This document shows, one piece after another, positions 792 to 24,980 of a stretch of 31,135 bases of DNA. This DNA is from Schoenoplectus triqueter (Eukaryota > Streptophyta > Magnoliopsida > Poales > Cyperaceae). Every line of letters starts with the position of its first letter. Positions within the stretch are counted from its first letter, which is position 1. A model generated the notes under the pieces. The model made no database searches and was not told the origin of the DNA. It saw only the letters and a list, made by a program, of their open reading frames with translations. Where the stretch lies: the NCBI GenBank assembly GCA_964058805.1, contig CAXKVV010000027.1:1-31135 (forward strand), written 5' to 3'. The position numbers were made by a program, and so were the translations under genes.

Positions 792-1952
792 TTAGGGTTT
801 TGGGTGGGGCAAAGGTGTTTGCATGGCAGAAAAACCATTGTTGTTGGCAACAAAGTCATCATTTCTACCTAGGCCTTCTAAAGCTCTCACCTGAGACTTT
901 AGAAACTTCAGATAATTTGCTGCTTCATCAAGCATGGTTGCAGTATCCATCTTGCTACCGCCTGGTACCAGGCGCTGTAAAACCCTCAATCTTTCACTGA
1001 CTCTTTCTCTTCTCATCCTGGCCGCAACTGTCTGCGGGTCACTTGATATTCTCACATTCTTTCTTTTAGGTTTTTCCACTGTCTCCTCAGCACCGAGGTT
1101 TACCGGCCTCATGGCTGCTGCTCTGTATATCATTTCTTTTACTTGTGCCATCGCCTCTGTGTCTGGTTCGAACTCTCCATCATGTCCCCCAAAGTTTATG
1201 CTCGAATAGCATGCCGAGTTATTTTCCATTCGTTGCCTCTTCTGTCTGCTTTTACATGCAAAAGATATTTCATATCCCCTTTCATTGACAAGAGGGCTAC
1301 TCTTGCCTTGTTGGAGAAGGCTATATGGCTGGTTCTCTTCCTTTTCTAGTTTTCTCTTGTTTCTTTCTGAGTTTAATGAAGATCGGGATGTGTGTGGCGG
1401 CTCAGGATTCGACGAGCTCTGCGAGGCCGCCTCATCACGGTTTGAAAATTGGTTCCCGTCAAATGAGCCACAGTTATCTGATTCCCCAGATATGATATTA
1501 CTGCTGTGACTCAAGTTATAAGGGTTTTCACTGGTTGAGAAGATGGGTTCAAACAAATTACTGTGCTGGTTTAGCATGACTGCAGCATTGGTGCATGGTA
1601 GGAGGGAAGGTAAATTTTGAGGTGGTAGATCAGTTGATCCCCATGTGCTTGTGTCATGGTGGTTTTGTAATGAGTTGAGATCTGATACTGAACCCAAGTT
1701 GGGATGAAGAACCATACCCTCAATTTGAGTATTTCTTTCTAGGTTGGAGCTTGCTGTTTCACACGGTTGAATGTCTTGCACTTCTAAACTTGTGGCAATT
1801 AGCGTTTCTTCAAGAACCGCTTTTCCTCGTATTTCACCACTGTAGAAGTATGCATTTGATTCAGAGAAGTTGTCATATTGGATGCTTGACAGACATCCGG
1901 GAATCGTTGGATTTATCTCGCTTTGCATGTAGATGGAATTAGCCCAATCCAT
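792..1952 (-). CDS. bHLH transcription factor, bHLH87/HECATE-like (subgroup VIIIb type)
   Basis: This 386-residue protein is encoded in one uninterrupted coding exon. Residues about 304-358 form a basic helix-loop-helix domain: basic stretch [17 protein letters not shown], loop around [10 protein letters not shown] (328-337), then helix 2 with [19 protein letters not shown]. Upstream, residues 264-287 ([20 protein letters not shown] and following) match a block conserved just before the domain in bHLH87 and HECATE-like proteins. The N-terminal 200 residues are Ser/Asn/Gln-rich and probably disordered. The length is close to Arabidopsis bHLH87. In the basic region, Gln and Ala replace the usual His-5 and Glu-9, as in the HECATE/INDEHISCENT group, so binding to a canonical E-box is doubtful. 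It is expected to be nuclear and to act as a dimer. The start is the first ATG of the frame, just after a plausible UTR splice acceptor. Family assignment is firm; bHLH87 orthology is likely, not proven. Confidence 0.92.
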
Positions 1953-1967
1953 CGCTTTTGTCAGATG

Positions 1968-13030: not shown

Positions 13031-13064
<34 letters not shown>

Positions 13065-13074
13065 AGAGAGAGAG
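13031..13074. repeat. (TA)n(GA)n microsatellite at the left edge of hairpin element A1
   Basis: About fourteen TA units run directly into (GA)n, then into the degenerate left end of element A1. This TA-then-GA pattern recurs at most junctions of the hairpin elements in the window. Confidence 0.85.
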
Positions 13075-13458
13075 TTTATGATGTTTTGTAAAGTAAAAAA
13101 TCGTTACTGTTTTGGGATGAGATTTCATATTCCGAGGTCTCAAATGATCAATCTAAGTTGATCAATAATTTCTTCATGTCAAAACTTTGTAGGATATTAA
13201 ATTTCATGATTTTTTGAGCTTTCTAATTATTCTTTAAATTATTTTTAAAAACAGCCCTGAAATAGACTATTTTTTTATATTAAACAGGGCTGATTTTAAA
13301 AAATAGTTAGAAAGCTTAAAAAATTATAAAATTTAATATCCGACAAGATTTTGATATGAATAAATTATTAAGCAACTTAAATTGACCATTTGAGACCTCG
13401 GCATATGAAATCTCATCCCGAAATAATAATAATTTTTTGCTTTGCAAAGCACCATAAG

Positions 13459-13460
<2 letters not shown>
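13075..13460. mobile_element. Fold-back hairpin element, family A copy 1
   Basis: The left arm (about 13075-13245) and right arm (about 13290-13460) are inverted copies. Both contain matching landmarks such as GATGAGATTTCATAT, GAGGTCTCAAATG and GGATATTAAATTT with their reverse complements. The arms meet at a core beginning CAGCCCTGAAATAGACT and closing with CAGGGCTG. The right end carries TGCTTTGCAAAGCA and ACCATAA before a (TA)n run; the left end is a mutated version of the same. There is no coding capacity. The transcript would fold into a hairpin of about 170 bp, a likely small-RNA source. Confidence 0.75.

Positions 13461-13514
<54 letters not shown>
13460..13514. repeat. (TA)n(GA)n microsatellite joining elements A1 and B1
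   Basis: About fifteen TA units followed by about thirteen GA units. The same arrangement joins A2 and B2 at 20251-20297. Confidence 0.9.
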
Positions 13515-13942
13515 TGGAGATATCGTGAGCTTAAGCTCACGGAGGCCTTCCGTGAGCTTAACTCAAAAAACATATCAAATCATTTCAAAATTTTAATTTA
13601 TCATTCTCATTAAATTCTTTATATGAAAATCTCATGGGATGTAAAAATTTGGAGCGTTTTGAGCTTTTTAAATTGTGGTTTTTAATTTTTGAAAATCAGC
13701 TCTAAAAATAATAATAATATATTCAATACTTGAACATCATTTTAAAAAATTAAAAACGGTGACTTAAAAAGCTCAAAACACTCTAAATTTTTGCATCCCA
13801 CAAGATTTTTATATAAAGAATTTAATGGGAATGATAAATTAAAATTTCGAGATGATTTAATATATTTTTTGAGCTAAGCTCACGGAACGCTTACGTGAGT
13901 TTAAGCTCACGGTATCTCTCTCTCTATATATATATATAGTAG
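13515..13942. mobile_element. Fold-back hairpin element, family B copy 1
   Basis: The ends carry GAGCTTAAGCTC, a perfect 12-bp palindrome, then CACGGAGGCCTTCCGTG, a second palindrome. Equivalent text occurs inverted at the right end (about 13872-13912). The arms contain ATTTTAATTTATCATTCTC and its inverse plus AGCTTTTTAA and its inverse. They flank a loop around 13700-13745 (AAAATCAGCTCTAAAAAT and following). The right edge runs into CTCTCTCTATATATATATAG. There is no coding capacity. It is the same family as 20298-20692. Confidence 0.75.
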
Positions 13943-19019: not shown

Positions 19020-19840
19020 AGTCAGAGAAAACTCATGTTTTGAAGTTATAACGGAAATTCCATCTATACCCTTCCACGATTTTAAATTTACTCATCCTGC
19101 TTGTTGTTACGCTGTACACCAAAAAATTTACTCCGCGTCCAAATTTCTTAAACCTTATAAATCCTTTTAAATAAAATATTATCACACTGGAGCCGTAAAA
19201 ATTCATAGTAAGTGGATCACTCGTAATTCATTGAGGATTTATTCGAATTTAACTTGTTCGTTAAATTCATTAAATTAATAAGGTGAGTATGAGCTAAATC
19301 TGATTCGACTCATTAAACTCATTAAATTTGTTAAGTTAACAAATTAATATCAAGCCAGCATTTTTATCTCGTTAAGTCAACTAAATACAAAGCAATGGCT
19401 TTTTAAATATATGTGTTACATTGAGTATTAAAAAGTTACAATAGTTCAAAAAAAATTATTTGATCTGGTAAAATTTTCGACGTAAATGACGCCTCGCTAA
19501 AAATTACAAATTTAGTGAAACTTCACAATTTTTTGATGCATTTATTTAATCATTTTATTCATTTGTTTTAGATAGTAAAGATAATTTATAGCTCTATAGA
19601 TAATAAGTAGATCTCGGCTTAGCAAAATTTTATTTCTTATATATTTATTTAACTAATTTAAAAAGTAGTGTCTACAAATTTCGTGAAATGAAAACAAATT
19701 ATATGAAACAACATTCTTAAACCGATCTAATTTACAGAGAAACAAAAACATATGTAAAAGTTATTTTTGAAAGGTAATAAAAGTAATGTTTTTATCCTTT
19801 TTACAAAATCAATTAATCAATATTAAATAACTGAATATAT
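19020..19840. other. AT-rich upstream DNA of the telomere-binding gene
   Basis: Contains the probable promoter, then AT-rich sequence with no supported gene. A TATA-like TTTATTTAAAAGG can be read on the minus strand near 19165, but the transcription start is unknown. Confidence 0.4.
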
Positions 19841-19844
19841 ATAG

Positions 19845-20250
19845 AGAGATATGTTATGGTGCTTTGCAAACTAAAATATATATATTATTTTGGGGGTGAG
19901 ATTTAATATCCCGAGATCTCAAATGATGAATCTAAGTTGCTCAATAATTTATTCATTTCAATACCTTATAGGATATTAAATTCATGATTTTTTGAGCTTT
20001 CTAGCTGTTTTTTAAATTATTTTTAAAATCAGCCTTGTTTAACATAAGAAAATAGTCTATTTCGGGGCTGATTTTAAAATAATTTAAAAAATAGCTAGAA
20101 AGTCATAAAATCATGAAATTTAATATCCCACAAAATTTTGACATGAAAAAATTATTGACTAACTTAGATTGATCATTTGAGATCTCAGAATATTAAATCA
20201 CATTGGAAGGCAATATAGATTTTTTGCTTTGCAAAGCACCATAATACATC
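19845..20250. mobile_element. Fold-back hairpin element, family A copy 2
   Basis: It begins TATGGTGCTTTGCAAA and ends TTTGCAAAGCACCATAA, so its termini are inverted copies. The arms share GAGATCTCAAATGAT, GGATATTAAATT and TTTTTTAAATTATTTT with their reverse complements. The core reads CAGCCTTGTTTAACATAAG through TAGTCTATTTCGGGGCTG, the reverse complement of the A1 core with a few changes. There is no coding capacity. It is followed by (TA)n(GA)n and element B2. Confidence 0.8.

Positions 20251-20297
<47 letters not shown>
20251..20297. repeat. (TA)n(GA)n microsatellite joining A2 and B2
   Basis: About twelve TA units then about twelve GA units, matching the A1/B1 junction in order and position. 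Confidence 0.9.
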
Positions 20298-20692
20298 TAA
20301 ACATATCGTGAACTTAAACTTACGGAGGTCTTCTGTGAGCTTCACTCAAACAGTATATTAAATCATCTCTAAATTTTAATTTATCATGCTCATTAAATTT
20401 TTTATATGAAAATCTTGTGGAATGCAAAAATTTAGAGTGTTTTAAACTTTTTAAGTCATGATTTTTAATTTTGGAAAATCAGCTCTAAAAATATTTAATG
20501 TTTGAACATTATTTTTAAAAATAAAAACTGATGATTTAAAAAGCTCAAAACACTCTAATTTTTTATATCCCACAAGATTTTCATATAAAGAATTTAATTA
20601 GTATGATAAATTAAAATTTGGAGATGATTTGATGTATTTTTTAGTTAAGCTCACGAAAGGCCTCCGTAAGATTAAGCTCATGATATTTTTAC
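20298..20692. mobile_element. Fold-back hairpin element, family B copy 2
   Basis: It is collinear with B1: ATATCGTGA, a degenerate end palindrome, ATTTTAATTTATCATGCTC, ATATGAAAATCTTGTGG, AAAATCAGCTCTAAAAAT, then the inverted arm ending at CTCACGAAAGGCCTCCGTAAG and AAGCTCATGATAT. Core orientation is the same as in B1. There is no coding capacity. Confidence 0.8.
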
Positions 20693-20757
20693 TCTCTCTC
20701 TCTATATATATAGAGAGAGAGAGATCTCTCTCTATATATATAGAGAGAGAGAGAGAG
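20692..20757. repeat. Two tandem CT-TA-GA palindromes between B2 and C
   Basis: The unit (CT)n-TATATATA-(GA)n is present twice in a row with ATCT at the join. Each unit is a near-perfect palindrome of about 30 bases. It looks like two element termini brought together. Confidence 0.85.
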
Positions 20758-21165
20758 TAAAGCTAGTGTGCTCCTCGGAGCACGGAGCCCCTCCGTGATT
20801 CTAAATCAAAAAAATATAATAAATAGTTTTCAAACTTTGATTTATCACCCTCATTAAATTTTCATATTGAAATATTATGGGGAACAAAAATTTTGGGTGT
20901 TTCGAGTTTTCTAAATCGTTCTTTTTAATTTTTAAAAATAATATACAAACATTAAATATTTTATCATTATTTTTAGAGTTGATTTTCAAAAATTAAAAAG
21001 TGCGACATAGAAAACTTGAAACGCCTCAAATTTTTGTACCCCATAAGAAATCAATATGAAGAATTTAATGAGAGTGATAAATCAAAATTTTTAAATATTA
21101 TTTGATATATCTTTTGAGTTAGGATCACGGAGGGGCTCTGTGCTCTTAGCAGCACGTTAGTTTTA
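20758..21165. mobile_element. Fold-back hairpin element, family C (diverged relative of B)
   Basis: The left end has GTGCTCCTCGGAGCAC, a 16-base near-palindrome, then CACGGAGCCCCTCCGTG. The right end has GATCACGGAGGGGCTC and GCTCTTAGCAGCAC. The arms share TTTGATTTATCACCCTCATT and ATGGGGAACAAAAATTTTG with their reverse complements. Layout and several words match family B (end palindrome, ATTTATCA, CTCATTAAATT, TTTTTAATTTTTAAAAAT), so B and C appear to be related. There is no coding capacity. Confidence 0.75.
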
Positions 21166-21179
21166 CTATATATATATAG

Positions 21180-21587
21180 TCCGACTATGGTGCTTTGCAA
21201 AGCACAGAGGCGTTGTGTGCTTTGCGTTTTATTTTTAATTTTAAGTCAGAAATAATCGATCCGAACTGTTCAATCTAATCTTCATATAAAAATCTATTAG
21301 TAAACCAAATTTTATATTTTTTTAAAAAAAATTTGCTATTTTTTCTGATGAGGAGAAAAATGACTTGATCTGAGAATTCTGGTTCATCCAAAAATGATGG
21401 TTTTCCCCCCTAACCAAAAAAATAGCAAATAAATTCTAAAAAATATAAAATTTGGTTTACTAATAGATTTTGATATGAAGATTAGATTGAATGATTTGGA
21501 TCGATCATTTCTAATTTAAAATTAATAATAGAGCACAAAACACACAACGCTCTTGTGCTTTGTAAATCACCATAGCCTAATTCTATA
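21180..21587. mobile_element. Fold-back hairpin element, family D copy 1
   Basis: It opens CCGACTATGGTGCTTTGC with the perfect 16-bp palindrome GTGCTTTGCAAAGCAC, and closes GTGCTTTGTAAATCACCAT. Arms of about 170 bp include TCAATCTAATCTTCATAT, AAATCTATTAGTAAACCAAA and TTTTATATTTTTTT with their inverses. The core reads GATGAGGAGAAAAATGACTT through TTCATCCAAAAATGATGG. The end palindrome is shared with family A. There is no coding capacity. Confidence 0.8.
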
Positions 21588-21589
21588 TA

Positions 21590-22005
21590 TATATAGAGAG
21601 AGAATTAGGTTATGGTAATTTGTAAAGCACAAGAGCGTTGTGTGCTTTGCGCTCTATTATTAATTTTAAGTCAAAAATTATCGATTCAAACCGCTCAATC
21701 TAATATTCATATCAAAATCTATTAGTAAACCAAATTTTATATTTTTTTGGAATTTATTTGCTATTTTTTTGAATAGGGGGGAAACCGTCATTTTTGGATG
21801 AACCAAAATTTTCAGATCAAGTCGTTTTCTCCTCATCAGAAAAAATAGCAACAAATTCTAAAAAATATAAAATTTGATTTAGTAATAAATTTTGATATGA
21901 AGATTAAATTGAATGGTTCAGATCGATTATTTCTGACTTAAAATTAAAAATAGAGCGCAAAGCACACAATGTCTCTGTACTTTGTAAAGCACCATAGTCG
22001 GACTA
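21590..22005. mobile_element. Fold-back hairpin element, family D copy 2 (inverted relative to copy 1)
   Basis: Its right end GCACCATAGTCGGACT is the reverse complement of the left end of D1. Its left end AGAATTAGGTTATGG mirrors the right end of D1. The core is inverted too (TTTTTGGATGAACC, CTCCTCATCAG). D1 and D2 therefore form an inverted repeat of about 410 bp per arm, with a short TA/GA spacer at 21584-21601. Confidence 0.8.
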
Positions 22006-22028
22006 TATATATATATATATATATATAT
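22005..22028. repeat. (TA)n microsatellite hosting the Helitron-like element
   Basis: About twelve TA units close the hairpin chain. The run resumes as GT/TA repeats at 22494-22517 on the far side of the Helitron-like element. Confidence 0.85.
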
Positions 22029-22494
22029 ACTATTATATAAAGCATCTAAGAATTGGAGGGTCCATTTTTTGTCATGGTAAATTTTTATTATACCCATTTT
22101 ATCCCTCAATTAGACAGATAATATTTATTGTTGGTTGATCGAACATATGTGATCGCGTCCATTGATCATCTCTTTCTCTCCATTTCTTTCCCTTATATAC
22201 TATTATTTCCATATTTTTTGTTTTTTATTTAGCAACCTTGTGCATATTTGGTAAGAAATTAATGGTGATAATATATGTTAGAATAATTTACTTTTCTTGC
22301 CATAAAAATCATGAATCATTAACTCATATTGTGCAAAAATCTCATCCAAGATTAAATATAGTCTTTATTATATGTTTTCTCTATAATTTGGTGAATTTAT
22401 AATTTAATATTAGATAAATGTGAATTTTTTTTATCTTATAATATTTTAATGTTTAAATAAAAAATTCTGTTGCAACGCGCGGGTATATAGTTAG
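22022..22494 (+). mobile_element. Short non-autonomous Helitron-like element
   Basis: The left end TACTATTATATAAAGCATC and the following GAATTGGAGGGTCC resemble the 5' end of many plant Helitrons (usually TC plus TATACTATTA..AAAGC). The right end has GTTGCAACGCGCGGGTATAT followed by AGTTAG before T, close to the GC-rich 3' stem and CTRR/T end of Helitrons. There is no terminal inverted repeat or target duplication, as expected. Flanks are TA- and GT-rich. No Rep/helicase frame is present in its roughly 470 bases. The 5' boundary is approximate because it merges with the (TA)n run. Confidence 0.65.
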
Positions 22495-22517
22495 TGTGTG
22501 TGTGTATATATATATAT

Positions 22518-24980
22518 TGTACAGAAGATTGAAAATCACAGAAAACAATATATGACGACTTATCACTTTATTGTTGTGTTGTTGAATCGAATATACGATT
22601 AAATATTGTATTTTGACTAAAAAAACACATATACCTATAGTCCATGTTATAGGCATAATTCGAAAACAATTTGACTCAAAAAAAAATAACAAATTAAATA
22701 TTCTTGTTTTGAGTCAATTTAATTGAGTCACTTTAGCAGCCATCCTTTATATCTCTTTATAAAAACAAGTTAAGAATGTCTACTAAAACTTTTGAGATCT
22801 ATTATCATATGTTGTTTTGTTGTATCGCTTCAGGAAAGAAGTTAAGAATGCCCACAAGAACAATAATAAATTGGTAACAATGAGAGCAACAGTGCAAACT
22901 TTATATATTAGCAGGATATATGCTTAAATAAAAAAATATTTATTTATATAGAACTATAGTGATAGTGTGATACGATGCTAGTTGTTTGGAAAGTAAGATT
23001 TTTAGTAAATGCATAAATGGCAAAAAGCTTTACCTTCAGCGTTATAACTTTATATATAAGAATTGTGCAATTTGTTTCATTTTAGTTTGTCGAGATAAAG
23101 ATTTAAACATGATATGGTGACCAACGGTTGAGATATATTTCATTTAATGTTCTGGTGCGTCGCTAAGAGGGTGACGCCCCAACGAAAATTGATTGGGTTT
23201 CATTTCCATAAAGATTGGTTGTTTTAGTACAGGGTTTGCCATCTGATTAGAGAAAAATATATTAATTGATGAAAATATATTAATTAGAGAAAAATCACCA
23301 TCTGATTAATAAATAATGGTAGTTGAAATAATTAATTCTAGAGGCGGTCTGTAAAATAAGGAAATTGTATTTACCTCAATAAATTACATTTTTGTCTTTT
23401 GCTATTTATCATTTATTTTTTTCATCTTGGTCTCTTTCATCTTTTTTTACTTTCTTTTTAAAATACTTATTGATCAGCGCTTGATTAATTTAATTATAGC
23501 ATTGTCTAAATTAAGCTTCAAATTAAATCATAGCTTGTGTCAGCATGCTACAGTAAAAGTCACCTCCTTTCAATTGAAAAATAAGCTTCAAATCAAAATT
23601 CTAAGACCAAACTTTTGTATGGTTTCTCGCTTTTCAAAATTAACCTGGCTTACAACAAACTACCAGAAAGAAACCATGAACAAGATTTTTACAAAGTTGC
23701 GTCAACGAACGGCTAGAGCACTTAAATATGTTTTACGACAAATAATTATTGTATTTATCTGTAACAAATGTATGGAAACTAAATATTAATATGATCAGTA
23801 CAAACTATAATGTTCATTCCCAATTCAAATTGTATTAATTCCAAAACGGGTCTAAATTTTTTCTTAAATTAAGGATATTGAAATTCTAAATTAATAAGGT
23901 TTACATGTTTATGTGTTGTTTGGATGGTGAGACAAAAAAAAAGGTAAGGAAAGAAAATGTTCTGTTTTATTCTTATTTAATTTGTTTGGATATTAAATAG
24001 AAAAATAAGGCTAATGACGGCTGCTCGTTTAATCTTATATAATTCCGTAGTTTATATGTTTTTTTCTTCTCATGTTCTATTTGTCTTAAATCACAATTGA
24101 GACATTTTTAGTTTTCTCTTGATTATTTTTTTCTGAATTTGTAAATTTTTGTTGATTTAATATAAAGAAAATAGAGGCTTACGCCTCTATTTCTTTTTTG
24201 ATTAAAAAATAATAAAAAATATAGAAAATAGATAACATTTTTGTCGGTTCTCTTCCCTCTCCTTTTGCTCTTTACCTCCCTTTTTTCTCTTTTGTAAAAT
24301 CACACATGGTATCAGGGTATCATCAGATAACAAAGGAACCAATAACGAGAATTACATGGCGACCTTTTTTTATTTTTACACTGTTATTTATTTTGTATGT
24401 TCTTTTTGAACTGTGCATCAATTCCCGCAAAAAGATAACATGACATAGAATCTAGGCTGTCTGCAATTAGGGAAATCAGGAGAATAGTGTACAATCTTCC
24501 TTGTACGAAAACATGATATAATTAATTGAACCCAGCAAGGCTGTAATTCCAGCAACCGAATGACAAAACTAAAATAACAATCAATCACAAAGAATAAGAG
24601 GTCAATTTATTTTCTCAATTTGATCTCTAATTCCAATACCAAATATATTTGTTTACATGTAAAACACATCCAAGGTAGTAAAAAGTACTCATTTCCTTCC
24701 AAGTCGAATCCGTTAGCAGCCAGAAAATTATATAATCACTTTAAAAAGCTCATAAAAATTAAGAAGCAACCAATTTTATCTAATCATATACAAAATGACA
24801 ACTCCACAAGCATCAGTCCACAAACAAAAAAAGAAAAGAAAAGAAAAAAGACTCTGTAAGTTATCTGTTACATTTAACTGTGATGATGAAGTGAAACTTC
24901 TCTACTCAATTGAGGGCAAGAAAGAAAAAGAAAAGAAAACACATGCCTTAACAAAACCAGTAGATAAGATATGATTGGCA
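22518..24980. other. AT-rich intergenic DNA upstream of the DUF3511 3' end
   Basis: No gene is supported. The longest frame (23427-23789, +, 120 residues) is Lys/Ile/Leu-rich with no domain and is probably chance. Small structures: a stem around 23158-23182 (GCGTC..GACGC), a local repeat with CCATCTGATTA at both ends (23239-23307), and a perfect 10-bp stem at 24169-24192. The last 200-300 bases probably include the DUF3511 3' UTR. Confidence 0.45.
24169..24192. other. Perfect short hairpin
   Basis: AAATAGAGGC, loop TTAC, GCCTCTATTT: a ten-base-pair stem followed by a T-rich tract. It lies in intergenic DNA, about 800 bases downstream of the DUF3511 stop codon. Confidence 0.7.

What the first reader, a model, noticed from the sequence alone, without database searches (positions are those of the whole stretch)
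19845..22028. Chain of five fold-back elements (A-B-C-D1-D2) stacked through TA/GA microsatellites
Five hairpin elements of roughly 400 bp lie end to end with almost nothing between them except (TA)n and (GA)n runs. They fall into two sequence-related pairs: A and D share GTGCTTTGCAAAGCAC ends, and B and C share an end-palindrome layout and arm words. This looks like repeated insertion into microsatellites that the elements themselves carry, so each insertion creates the next target. It is reminiscent of the rice Micron elements reported in (TA)n loci. The stacking of several families into one 2.2-kb array is, to my knowledge, not a standard annotation class.
Basis: partly seen in the sequence, partly recalled or inferred. 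Interest (0 to 1): 0.75.

Follow-up and report, generated by a model that had tools for sequence, protein, structure and literature searches.

The report
Stacked hairpin transposons in TA microsatellites
A 2.2-kb plant DNA stretch holds five short hairpin-shaped jumping elements joined end to end by simple TA/GA repeats; this is a well-formed case of a pattern already published for other plants, in an unnamed monocot with many such copies.

Summary
The array is real. Elements A, B, C, D1 and D2, each about 400 bp and folding back over nearly its whole length, lie end to end with only TA/GA repeats between them. They belong to dispersed families in an 82-Mb assembly of an unnamed monocot. The four families are distantly related, and D2 is D in reverse. 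Other loci carry arrays of other composition and orientation. Of 212 ends of 106 distinct full-length copies, 172 abut a microsatellite (control about 1%). Of 52 sampled B and C copies, 35 have an array neighbour within 100 bp; I found no array element inside another. Two C copies outside microsatellites have exact 9-bp target duplications, as Mutator-like elements (MULEs) do. This is the published SaTar / mt-MITE phenomenon (guayule, rice, sorghum, citrus, pineapple): new families of a known kind. Additions: a sixth member, a non-autonomous Helitron (22024-22494), abuts the same TA run; a second array (A'-B') lies at 13.0-13.9 kb; and in 46 of 51 readable copies the TA phase on the two sides does not fit a 9-bp duplication inside pure (TA)n. 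No autonomous partner (11 of 149 MULE matches examined) and no empty site was found.

The parts
19846..20251 (+). Element A, fold-back MITE (ends GAGATATGTTATGG .. CCATAATACATCT)
   Evidence: 91.9% to an 8-copy consensus; first-look candidates in assembly 305
20252..20294 (.). (TA)n(GA)n spacer A-B
20295..20694 (+). Element B, fold-back MITE (ends GAGTAAAC .. TTTTACTC)
   Evidence: 90.3% to a 37-copy consensus; 1824 first-look candidates (overlap with C)
20695..20754 (.). (TC)n(TA)n(GA)n doubled spacer B-C (30-bp unit x2)
20755..21167 (+). Element C, fold-back MITE, sister of B (ends GAGTAAAGC .. TTTTACT)
   Evidence: 90.2% to a 35-copy consensus; 1700 first-look candidates
21168..21177 (.). 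(TA)5 spacer C-D1
21178..21584 (+). Element D1, fold-back MITE (AGTCCGACTATGGTGC .. GCCTAATTCT)
   Evidence: 1381 first-look candidates; best other copies 92%
21585..21599 (.). (TA)n(GA)n spacer D1-D2
21600..22004 (-). Element D2, same family as D1, opposite orientation, 89% to D1
22005..22023 (.). (TA)n between D2 and the Helitron-type element
22024..22494 (+). Element E: non-autonomous Helitron-type repeat (family 5' TCTATACTATTATATAAAG, here TATATA..; 3' ..GCGCGGGTATATAGYTAG, then T)
   Evidence: 41 of the 42 other matches listed are 95-97% identical, one 92%; 766 first-look candidates
22495..22518 (.). (TG)n(TA)n right border of the array
13079..13454 (-). A' : second copy of family A in the window, in a second array
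   Evidence: 86% to consensus A
13460..13514 (.). (TA)15(AG)13 spacer of the second array
13518..13917 (+). B' : second copy of family B in the window
   Evidence: 94% to consensus B

Best explanation
The array was built by successive, independent insertions of non-autonomous Mutator-like MITEs (fold-back, about 400 bp, ends GAG..CTC) into one TA microsatellite. Each insertion leaves TA repeats on both sides, and so leaves the next element two new landing sites next to an intact neighbour. The GA/TC runs next to the ends come from replication slippage of the terminal GAG/CTC beside T. A transposase acting in trans on the GAG..CTC ends is inferred. Shown here: dispersed families, intact ends at microsatellites, arrays without nesting in the sample, variable composition, and 9-bp duplications outside microsatellites for two family C copies. 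Inferred: the MULE transposase, the slippage step, and the order of insertion.
For: 172 of 212 ends of 106 distinct full-length copies abut a microsatellite of 10 bp or more; control 177 of 20,000. 35 of 52 sampled B and C anchor copies have an array neighbour within 100 bp; counting every full-length copy in the fetched loci of 3 kb or more it is 83 of 104, or 77 of 98 without two duplicated loci. A scan for elements split by another gave 2 candidates among 242 annotated pieces (233 without duplicates); neither is one array element inside another. Compositions differ between loci, e.g. L008 C,C,A,B,B,D,D and L035 B-,D+,B+. D1 matches its best dispersed copies at 92% but its neighbour D2 at 89%, so D2 is not a local copy of D1. 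Exact 9-bp flanking duplications GTATATTAT (L048) and TATTTAGTA (L060). Microsatellites sit at intact ends (180 of 239) but less often at ends lacking more than 30 bp (5 of 45) or 100 bp and more (3 of 15). GA/TC runs of 5 nt or more beside (TA)n were followed by T in 37 of 37 ends, as slippage from CTC+T predicts. Published parallels.
Against: No autonomous MULE with A-D ends was found in the 11 MULE places looked at, of 149 matches. The clean 9-bp duplications are only two, both in family C; L053 and C905, also outside microsatellites, show none, and the general duplication scan (5 of 106) did not exceed its mispaired control (mean 3.0, max 8), the other three hits being microsatellite artefacts. 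TA phase: 46 of 51 readable copies have the same phase on both sides, which a 9-bp duplication in pure (TA)n cannot give. No empty site was seen. Many of the 45 shortened ends lack only 31-45 bp and look like a short-ended B form, so that comparison is blunt.
Confidence: 0.8

Rival explanations
1. Insertion into microsatellites happens by a second route without a 9-bp staggered cut: homologous or microhomology joining of excised (perhaps circular) elements that carry filler TA repeats, as the SaTar authors suggest, with classical transposition only outside microsatellites.
For: Same TA phase on both sides in 46 of 51 readable copies, expected of zero or even-length duplication but not of 9 bp. 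PMC5907723 reports flanks inconsistent with its 10-bp duplications and proposes this model.
Against: Intact rather than shortened ends sit at the microsatellites (180 of 239 against 5 of 45), which asks for end recognition. An 8- or 10-bp duplication explains the phase equally well. Loss of single terminal bases can shift phase; about ten ends look like that. The phase is unreadable by my rule in 51 of 98 B/C/D copies and in 6 of the ten extra C copies; by eye some of these (L054, C262) look opposite.
Confidence: 0.25
2. The elements are Tc1/mariner (Stowaway-like) MITEs that duplicate the dinucleotide TA, so TA runs are simply good targets.
For: A TA duplication would give the TA..TA phase seen at most readable ends.
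Against: The two cleanest non-microsatellite copies show 9-bp duplications (GTATATTAT; TATTTAGTA), not TA alone. The ends GAG..CTC are not the Stowaway CTCCCTCC end (recalled). No search for mariner genes was made.
Confidence: 0.06
3. The array is one composite unit, or a tandem duplication, amplified as a block.
For: Only that D1 and D2 are of one family; the A'-B' pair at 13.1-13.9 kb has two of the same families.
Against: The loci fetched with A, B, C and D show copies in different neighbourhoods and orders. D1 and D2 are less alike (89%) than D1 and its best distant copies (92%). A' and A have opposite orientation relative to B' and B.
Confidence: 0.03

Closest known systems
SaTar elements (guayule, rice, sorghum, citrus; PMC5907723, abstract, Results and first part of Discussion read)
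   Same: Small non-autonomous inverted-repeat elements at (TA)n and other microsatellites, joined end to end in mixed non-nested arrays, with 9-10-bp duplications in members outside microsatellites
   Different: Array members here belong to one loose sequence clan rather than unrelated families; neighbours were more frequent in my best-match sample (35 of 52 anchor copies) than the about 30% linked in guayule; no autonomous MULE linked yet; a Helitron sits in the same array
Ac-mMITEs / mt-MITEs (pineapple; PMC8449440, abstract, first part of Results and Discussion read)
   Same: (TA)n flanks, non-nested clusters (46.1% of full-length copies), ends GA..TC with GA/TC runs attributed to slippage, 9/10-bp duplications outside microsatellites, no autonomous partner found
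   Different: Families of 510-570 and 210-270 bp there, about 400 bp here; no sequence comparison was possible
MuTAnT (Medicago; PMC4486113, abstract and Results read)
   Same: Fold-back hairpin over the whole length, TA targets, 9-nt duplications in copies outside perfect (TA)n
   Different: 292 bp, one family, a putative autonomous element known; arrays not described in the sections read
Micron (rice; original paper not read, known through PMC5907723 and passages of PMC12550479)
   Same: MITE-like, targets (TA)n
   Different: Sequence not compared

Membership tests
SaTar / mt-MITE (microsatellite-targeted non-autonomous MULE) | Small element defined by long terminal inverted repeats | tested here: met
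   Consensus arms 86-93% over 386-412 bp; folds z -18 (D1) and -21 (B)
SaTar / mt-MITE (microsatellite-targeted non-autonomous MULE) | Most copies flanked by microsatellites | tested here: met
   172 of 212 ends; of 105 copies with enough flank 72 on both sides, 28 on one, 5 on none; best-match sample, not the whole genome
SaTar / mt-MITE (microsatellite-targeted non-autonomous MULE) | Non-nested, modular arrays of mixed families | tested here: met
   Scan over 242 annotated pieces (233 without duplicates): 2 candidates, neither an array element inside another
SaTar / mt-MITE (microsatellite-targeted non-autonomous MULE) | 9-10-bp target duplications in members outside microsatellites | tested here: met
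   Family C only: of 5 C copies with both ends and no microsatellite, 2 have an exact 9-bp duplication, 1 an imperfect one (L040), 2 none (L053, C905); no clear non-microsatellite copy of A, B or D in the sample
SaTar / mt-MITE (microsatellite-targeted non-autonomous MULE) | Ends shared with an autonomous MULE of the same genome | tested here: inconclusive
   149 MULE-domain matches; 11 places looked at, 6 of them on the 5' side only; none bears A-D ends; one D half-arm beside a MULE proved to be a D copy cut by an unrelated repeat
Helitron (element E) | 5' TC, 3' CTRR, no duplication, insertion between A and T | tested here: met
   Family copies with both ends read A|TCTATACTATT .. CTAG|T by eye (criteria recalled); exceptions at the 5' end are the window copy, L083 and the second copies in L095 and L096; the window copy reads TTAG at its 3' end
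Helitron (element E) | Mobilised by a Rep-helicase protein | not tested
   No search made
Tc1/mariner MITE (Stowaway) | TA target duplication | tested here: not met
   The two clean non-microsatellite C copies have 9-bp duplications; not testable for A, B, D
Micron (rice) | Sequence similarity to Micron | not tested
   No rice sequence was fetched or compared

The most novel reading that the evidence does not exclude
One element family uses two integration modes: a 9-bp staggered MULE insertion in ordinary DNA, and a phase-preserving insertion in (TA)n that leaves an even-length duplication or none. Because the ordinary duplication here is odd, the TA phase on the two sides is a simple, genome-wide test of which mode was used; a 10-bp duplication, as in guayule, could not have shown it. 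46 of 51 readable copies favour the second mode.
Probability: 0.25. Interest if true: 0.6.

Novelty: new member of a known kind. Interest (0 to 1): 0.35.

Why it matters
It adds a dense, well-preserved case to the few plants in which microsatellite-targeted arrays have been described. The families are one related clan, so element ends and flanks can be compared directly. Because the ordinary duplication seems to be 9 bp, the TA phase beside each copy gives a cheap computational test of the unsettled question of how these elements enter microsatellites.

Tried and rejected
Autonomous partner: of 149 MULE-domain matches I looked at 11 places: C802 (L099), C13 (L100+L104), C1063 (L101), C643 (L102), C766 (L103), and the 5' side of C970, C258, C1197, C881, C623, C1241 (L105-L110). 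None has A-D ends as its terminal repeats. C13 looked promising because a D arm lies beside the MULE gene, but the 5.2-kb repeat holding that gene also occurs in C802 without the arm and begins where the arm stops, so D was cut by it. The listed places of three end patterns (only the first 100 or so of 578, 101 and 825 are shown) gave, by eye, no other pair of ends around a MULE match.

Empty site: the left flank has no second copy; the right flank turned out to be a Helitron family, so could not test it. Loci L005/L006 are identical where they could be compared, with the same elements. Rfam: no match in the window. Identity of the plant: a bHLH87 gene at 792-1967 (-) has best named relatives in pineapple (48%), Typha (47%) and oil palm (45%), so a monocot, not named further.

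Rejected: a fixed composite element; local duplication of D. Tc1/mariner is disfavoured. Weak points: loci were drawn as best matches to the window copies, so rates may differ genome-wide; counting every full-length copy (83 of 104) weights large arrays, and the anchor count (35 of 52) is the fairer one; locus ends cut arrays short; the microsatellite control includes the second array of the window; four overlapping loci (L001, L009, L015, L063) were dropped before the counts, but L065 (overlapping L008) and L006 (twin of L005) were left in, which one search corrects for the array counts; 21 of 127 full-length copies were dropped as identical; the nesting scan sees only elements whose two halves are both recognised.

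Full report
What is there. Reading 19500-22400 and the repeat search confirm five fold-back elements joined by TA/GA/TC runs: A, B, C, D1 and D2. Comparing copies with their flanks lets the ends be placed: all four families commonly end in GAG..CTC (A GAGATGTGTTATGG, B GAGTAAAGATACC, C GAGTAAAGCTAGC, D GAGTCCGACTATGG and, on its other end, GAGAATTAGGCTATGG), though the outer GA is often missing beside TA, as in D1 of the window. Single-strand folding of D1 and B is far below shuffled sequence. TATGGTGCTTTGCAAAGCAC, shared by A and D, occurs 578 times in the assembly with up to one mismatch and its reversed control 0 times.

Genome context. The window is one whole contig of an 82.09-Mb assembly of 2086 contigs. 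A bHLH87 gene in it is nearest to pineapple, Typha and oil palm among named proteins, so the plant is a monocot, otherwise unnamed. First-look candidate numbers are 305 (A), 1824 (B), 1700 (C) and 1381 (D); only 40 of each were scored, and B and C recognise each other, so these overlap. Consensus sequences show arms 92%, 93%, 93% and 86% alike over nearly the whole element; B and C are 81-85% alike; A is 67-69% alike to B, C and D over 156-235 bp; median identity of copies to consensus is 0.918, 0.931, 0.905 and 0.944. A further relative with the end TATGGTGCTTCGCGAAGCAC has 825 hits, control 0, many of the first 100 listed being pairs about 385 bp apart.

Flanks. Of 127 full-length copies in L001-L082, 106 were distinct. 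172 of their 212 ends have a microsatellite run of 10 bp or more starting within 12 bp, against 177 of 20,000 random positions of the window outside the array. Of 105 copies with enough flank, 72 have it on both sides, 28 on one and 5 on none. TA predominates, often with GA/TC next to the element; a few show (TTA)n, (GATA)n, (CA)n or (GT)n. GA/TC runs of 5 nt or more beside (TA)n are followed by T in 37 of 37 ends, while unexpanded CTC ends are followed by A in 15 and T in 11 (72 of 196 ends did not fit the pattern): this is what slippage of CTC+T predicts, and the pineapple authors reached the same view for their GA/TC runs.

Arrays. Of 52 anchor copies of B and C in loci of 3 kb or more, 35 have an array neighbour within 100 bp. 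Counting all full-length copies there the figure is 83 of 104, or 77 of 98 after dropping two duplicated loci; array sizes were then 1 (52), 2 (26), 3 (16), 4 (7) and 5 (5). Orders and orientations differ. A scan for split elements over 242 annotated pieces (233 without duplicates) gave two candidates: L062 holds a truncated D beside a related element, and L037 a B copy interrupted by about 400 bp of other DNA; neither is one array element inside another. Intact ends meet a microsatellite in 180 of 239 cases, ends lacking more than 30 bp in 5 of 45, ends lacking 100 bp or more in 3 of 15 (the 15 were counted from its list, and L005/L006 are one duplicated place). D1 is nearer to its best distant copies (92%) than to D2 (89%), so D2 looks like an independent arrival.

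Mechanism. Two C copies outside microsatellites have exact 9-bp direct repeats at their GAG/CTC ends (L048 GTATATTAT; L060 TATTTAGTA, with one extra G on the left). A third (L040) is imperfect, L053 has none, L050 has lost an end, and C905 has none. Over all copies the scan was not above its mispaired control (5 of 106; mean 3.0, max 8), because microsatellites match themselves; the case rests on those two. This fits Mutator-like elements. Inside pure (TA)n a 9-bp duplication must put the two flanks in opposite phase. Of 98 B/C/D copies, 47 were readable by a fixed rule: 42 had the same phase and 5 opposite. Of ten further C copies, 4 were readable and all 4 had the same phase. So 46 of 51 do not fit a 9-bp duplication in pure TA. 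By eye some unreadable copies (L054, C262) look opposite. An 8- or 10-bp duplication, no duplication, or loss of terminal bases could each explain the excess. The SaTar authors noted flanks that do not fit their 10-bp duplications and proposed recombination of circular intermediates; I saw no phase test in the sections that I read, and did not search for one as such.

What was not found. No autonomous element with A-D ends in the 11 places examined out of 149 MULE-domain matches, and no empty site.

The neighbour. From 22024 the array continues with E, an element with 766 first-look candidates; 41 of the 42 other matches listed are 95-97% alike, one 92%. Its family begins A|TCTATACTATT and ends CTAG|T, the marks of a Helitron (recalled); the window copy has lost the TC and lies directly in the TA run after D2. 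In one search, 8 of the 42 other matches run past position 460 of the query; of the six of these that I fetched, L083, L088, L089 and L098 have (TA)n at the 3' border and L097 a few bases away, L090 not. I fetched them partly for that reason, so L083-L098 are no fair sample.

A second array lies in the same window: A' 13079-13454 (-), (TA)15(AG)13, B' 13518-13917 (+).

Comparison. Non-nested arrays of microsatellite-targeted non-autonomous MULEs are described in PMC5907723 (abstract, Results, first part of Discussion read) and PMC8449440 (abstract, first part of Results, Discussion); PMC4486113 reports TA targeting by a single fold-back family (abstract, Results); PMC12550479 was seen in passages. 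The finding is a new set of families of this known kind; neighbours were more frequent in my sample (35 of 52) than the about 30% (guayule) and 46.1% (pineapple) of those reports, measured differently. The phase observation is its most useful addition.

Noticed in passing
window 13033-13940: A second array: A' (-) and B' (+) joined by (TA)15(AG)13 and bordered by (TA)n and (CT)n(TA)n.
   Followed up: partly
window 22024-22494: Non-autonomous Helitron-type element of a young, abundant family (766 first-look candidates; 41 of 42 other listed matches 95-97% identical) inserted in the same TA run.
   Followed up: partly
L115/L116 (C905:36871-37377): A C copy whose two flanks are inverted repeats of each other (39 nt, 95%), so it sits at the centre of a larger palindrome.
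   Followed up: no
L095 (C1494:8300-10250) and L096 (C4:337560-338720): Helitron family E occurs in neighbouring copies only 12-13 bp apart.
   Followed up: no
L099 (C802:2900-9600): A MULE-type 738-aa frame; 14 places share its 56.4-bit score; part of a repeat over 5.2 kb that in C13 cuts a D element.
   Followed up: partly
L101 (C1063:17800-23900): MULE with 217-bp terminal repeats (GGGAGCAGAGTGGGTG) and a 749-aa frame, apparently flanked by the direct repeat TTTTTTATT; no match to A-D.
   Followed up: no
window 792-1967 (-): bHLH87-like transcription factor gene; the closest relatives (99%, 90%, 88%, 86%) are unnamed jgi or lgn entries.
   Followed up: no
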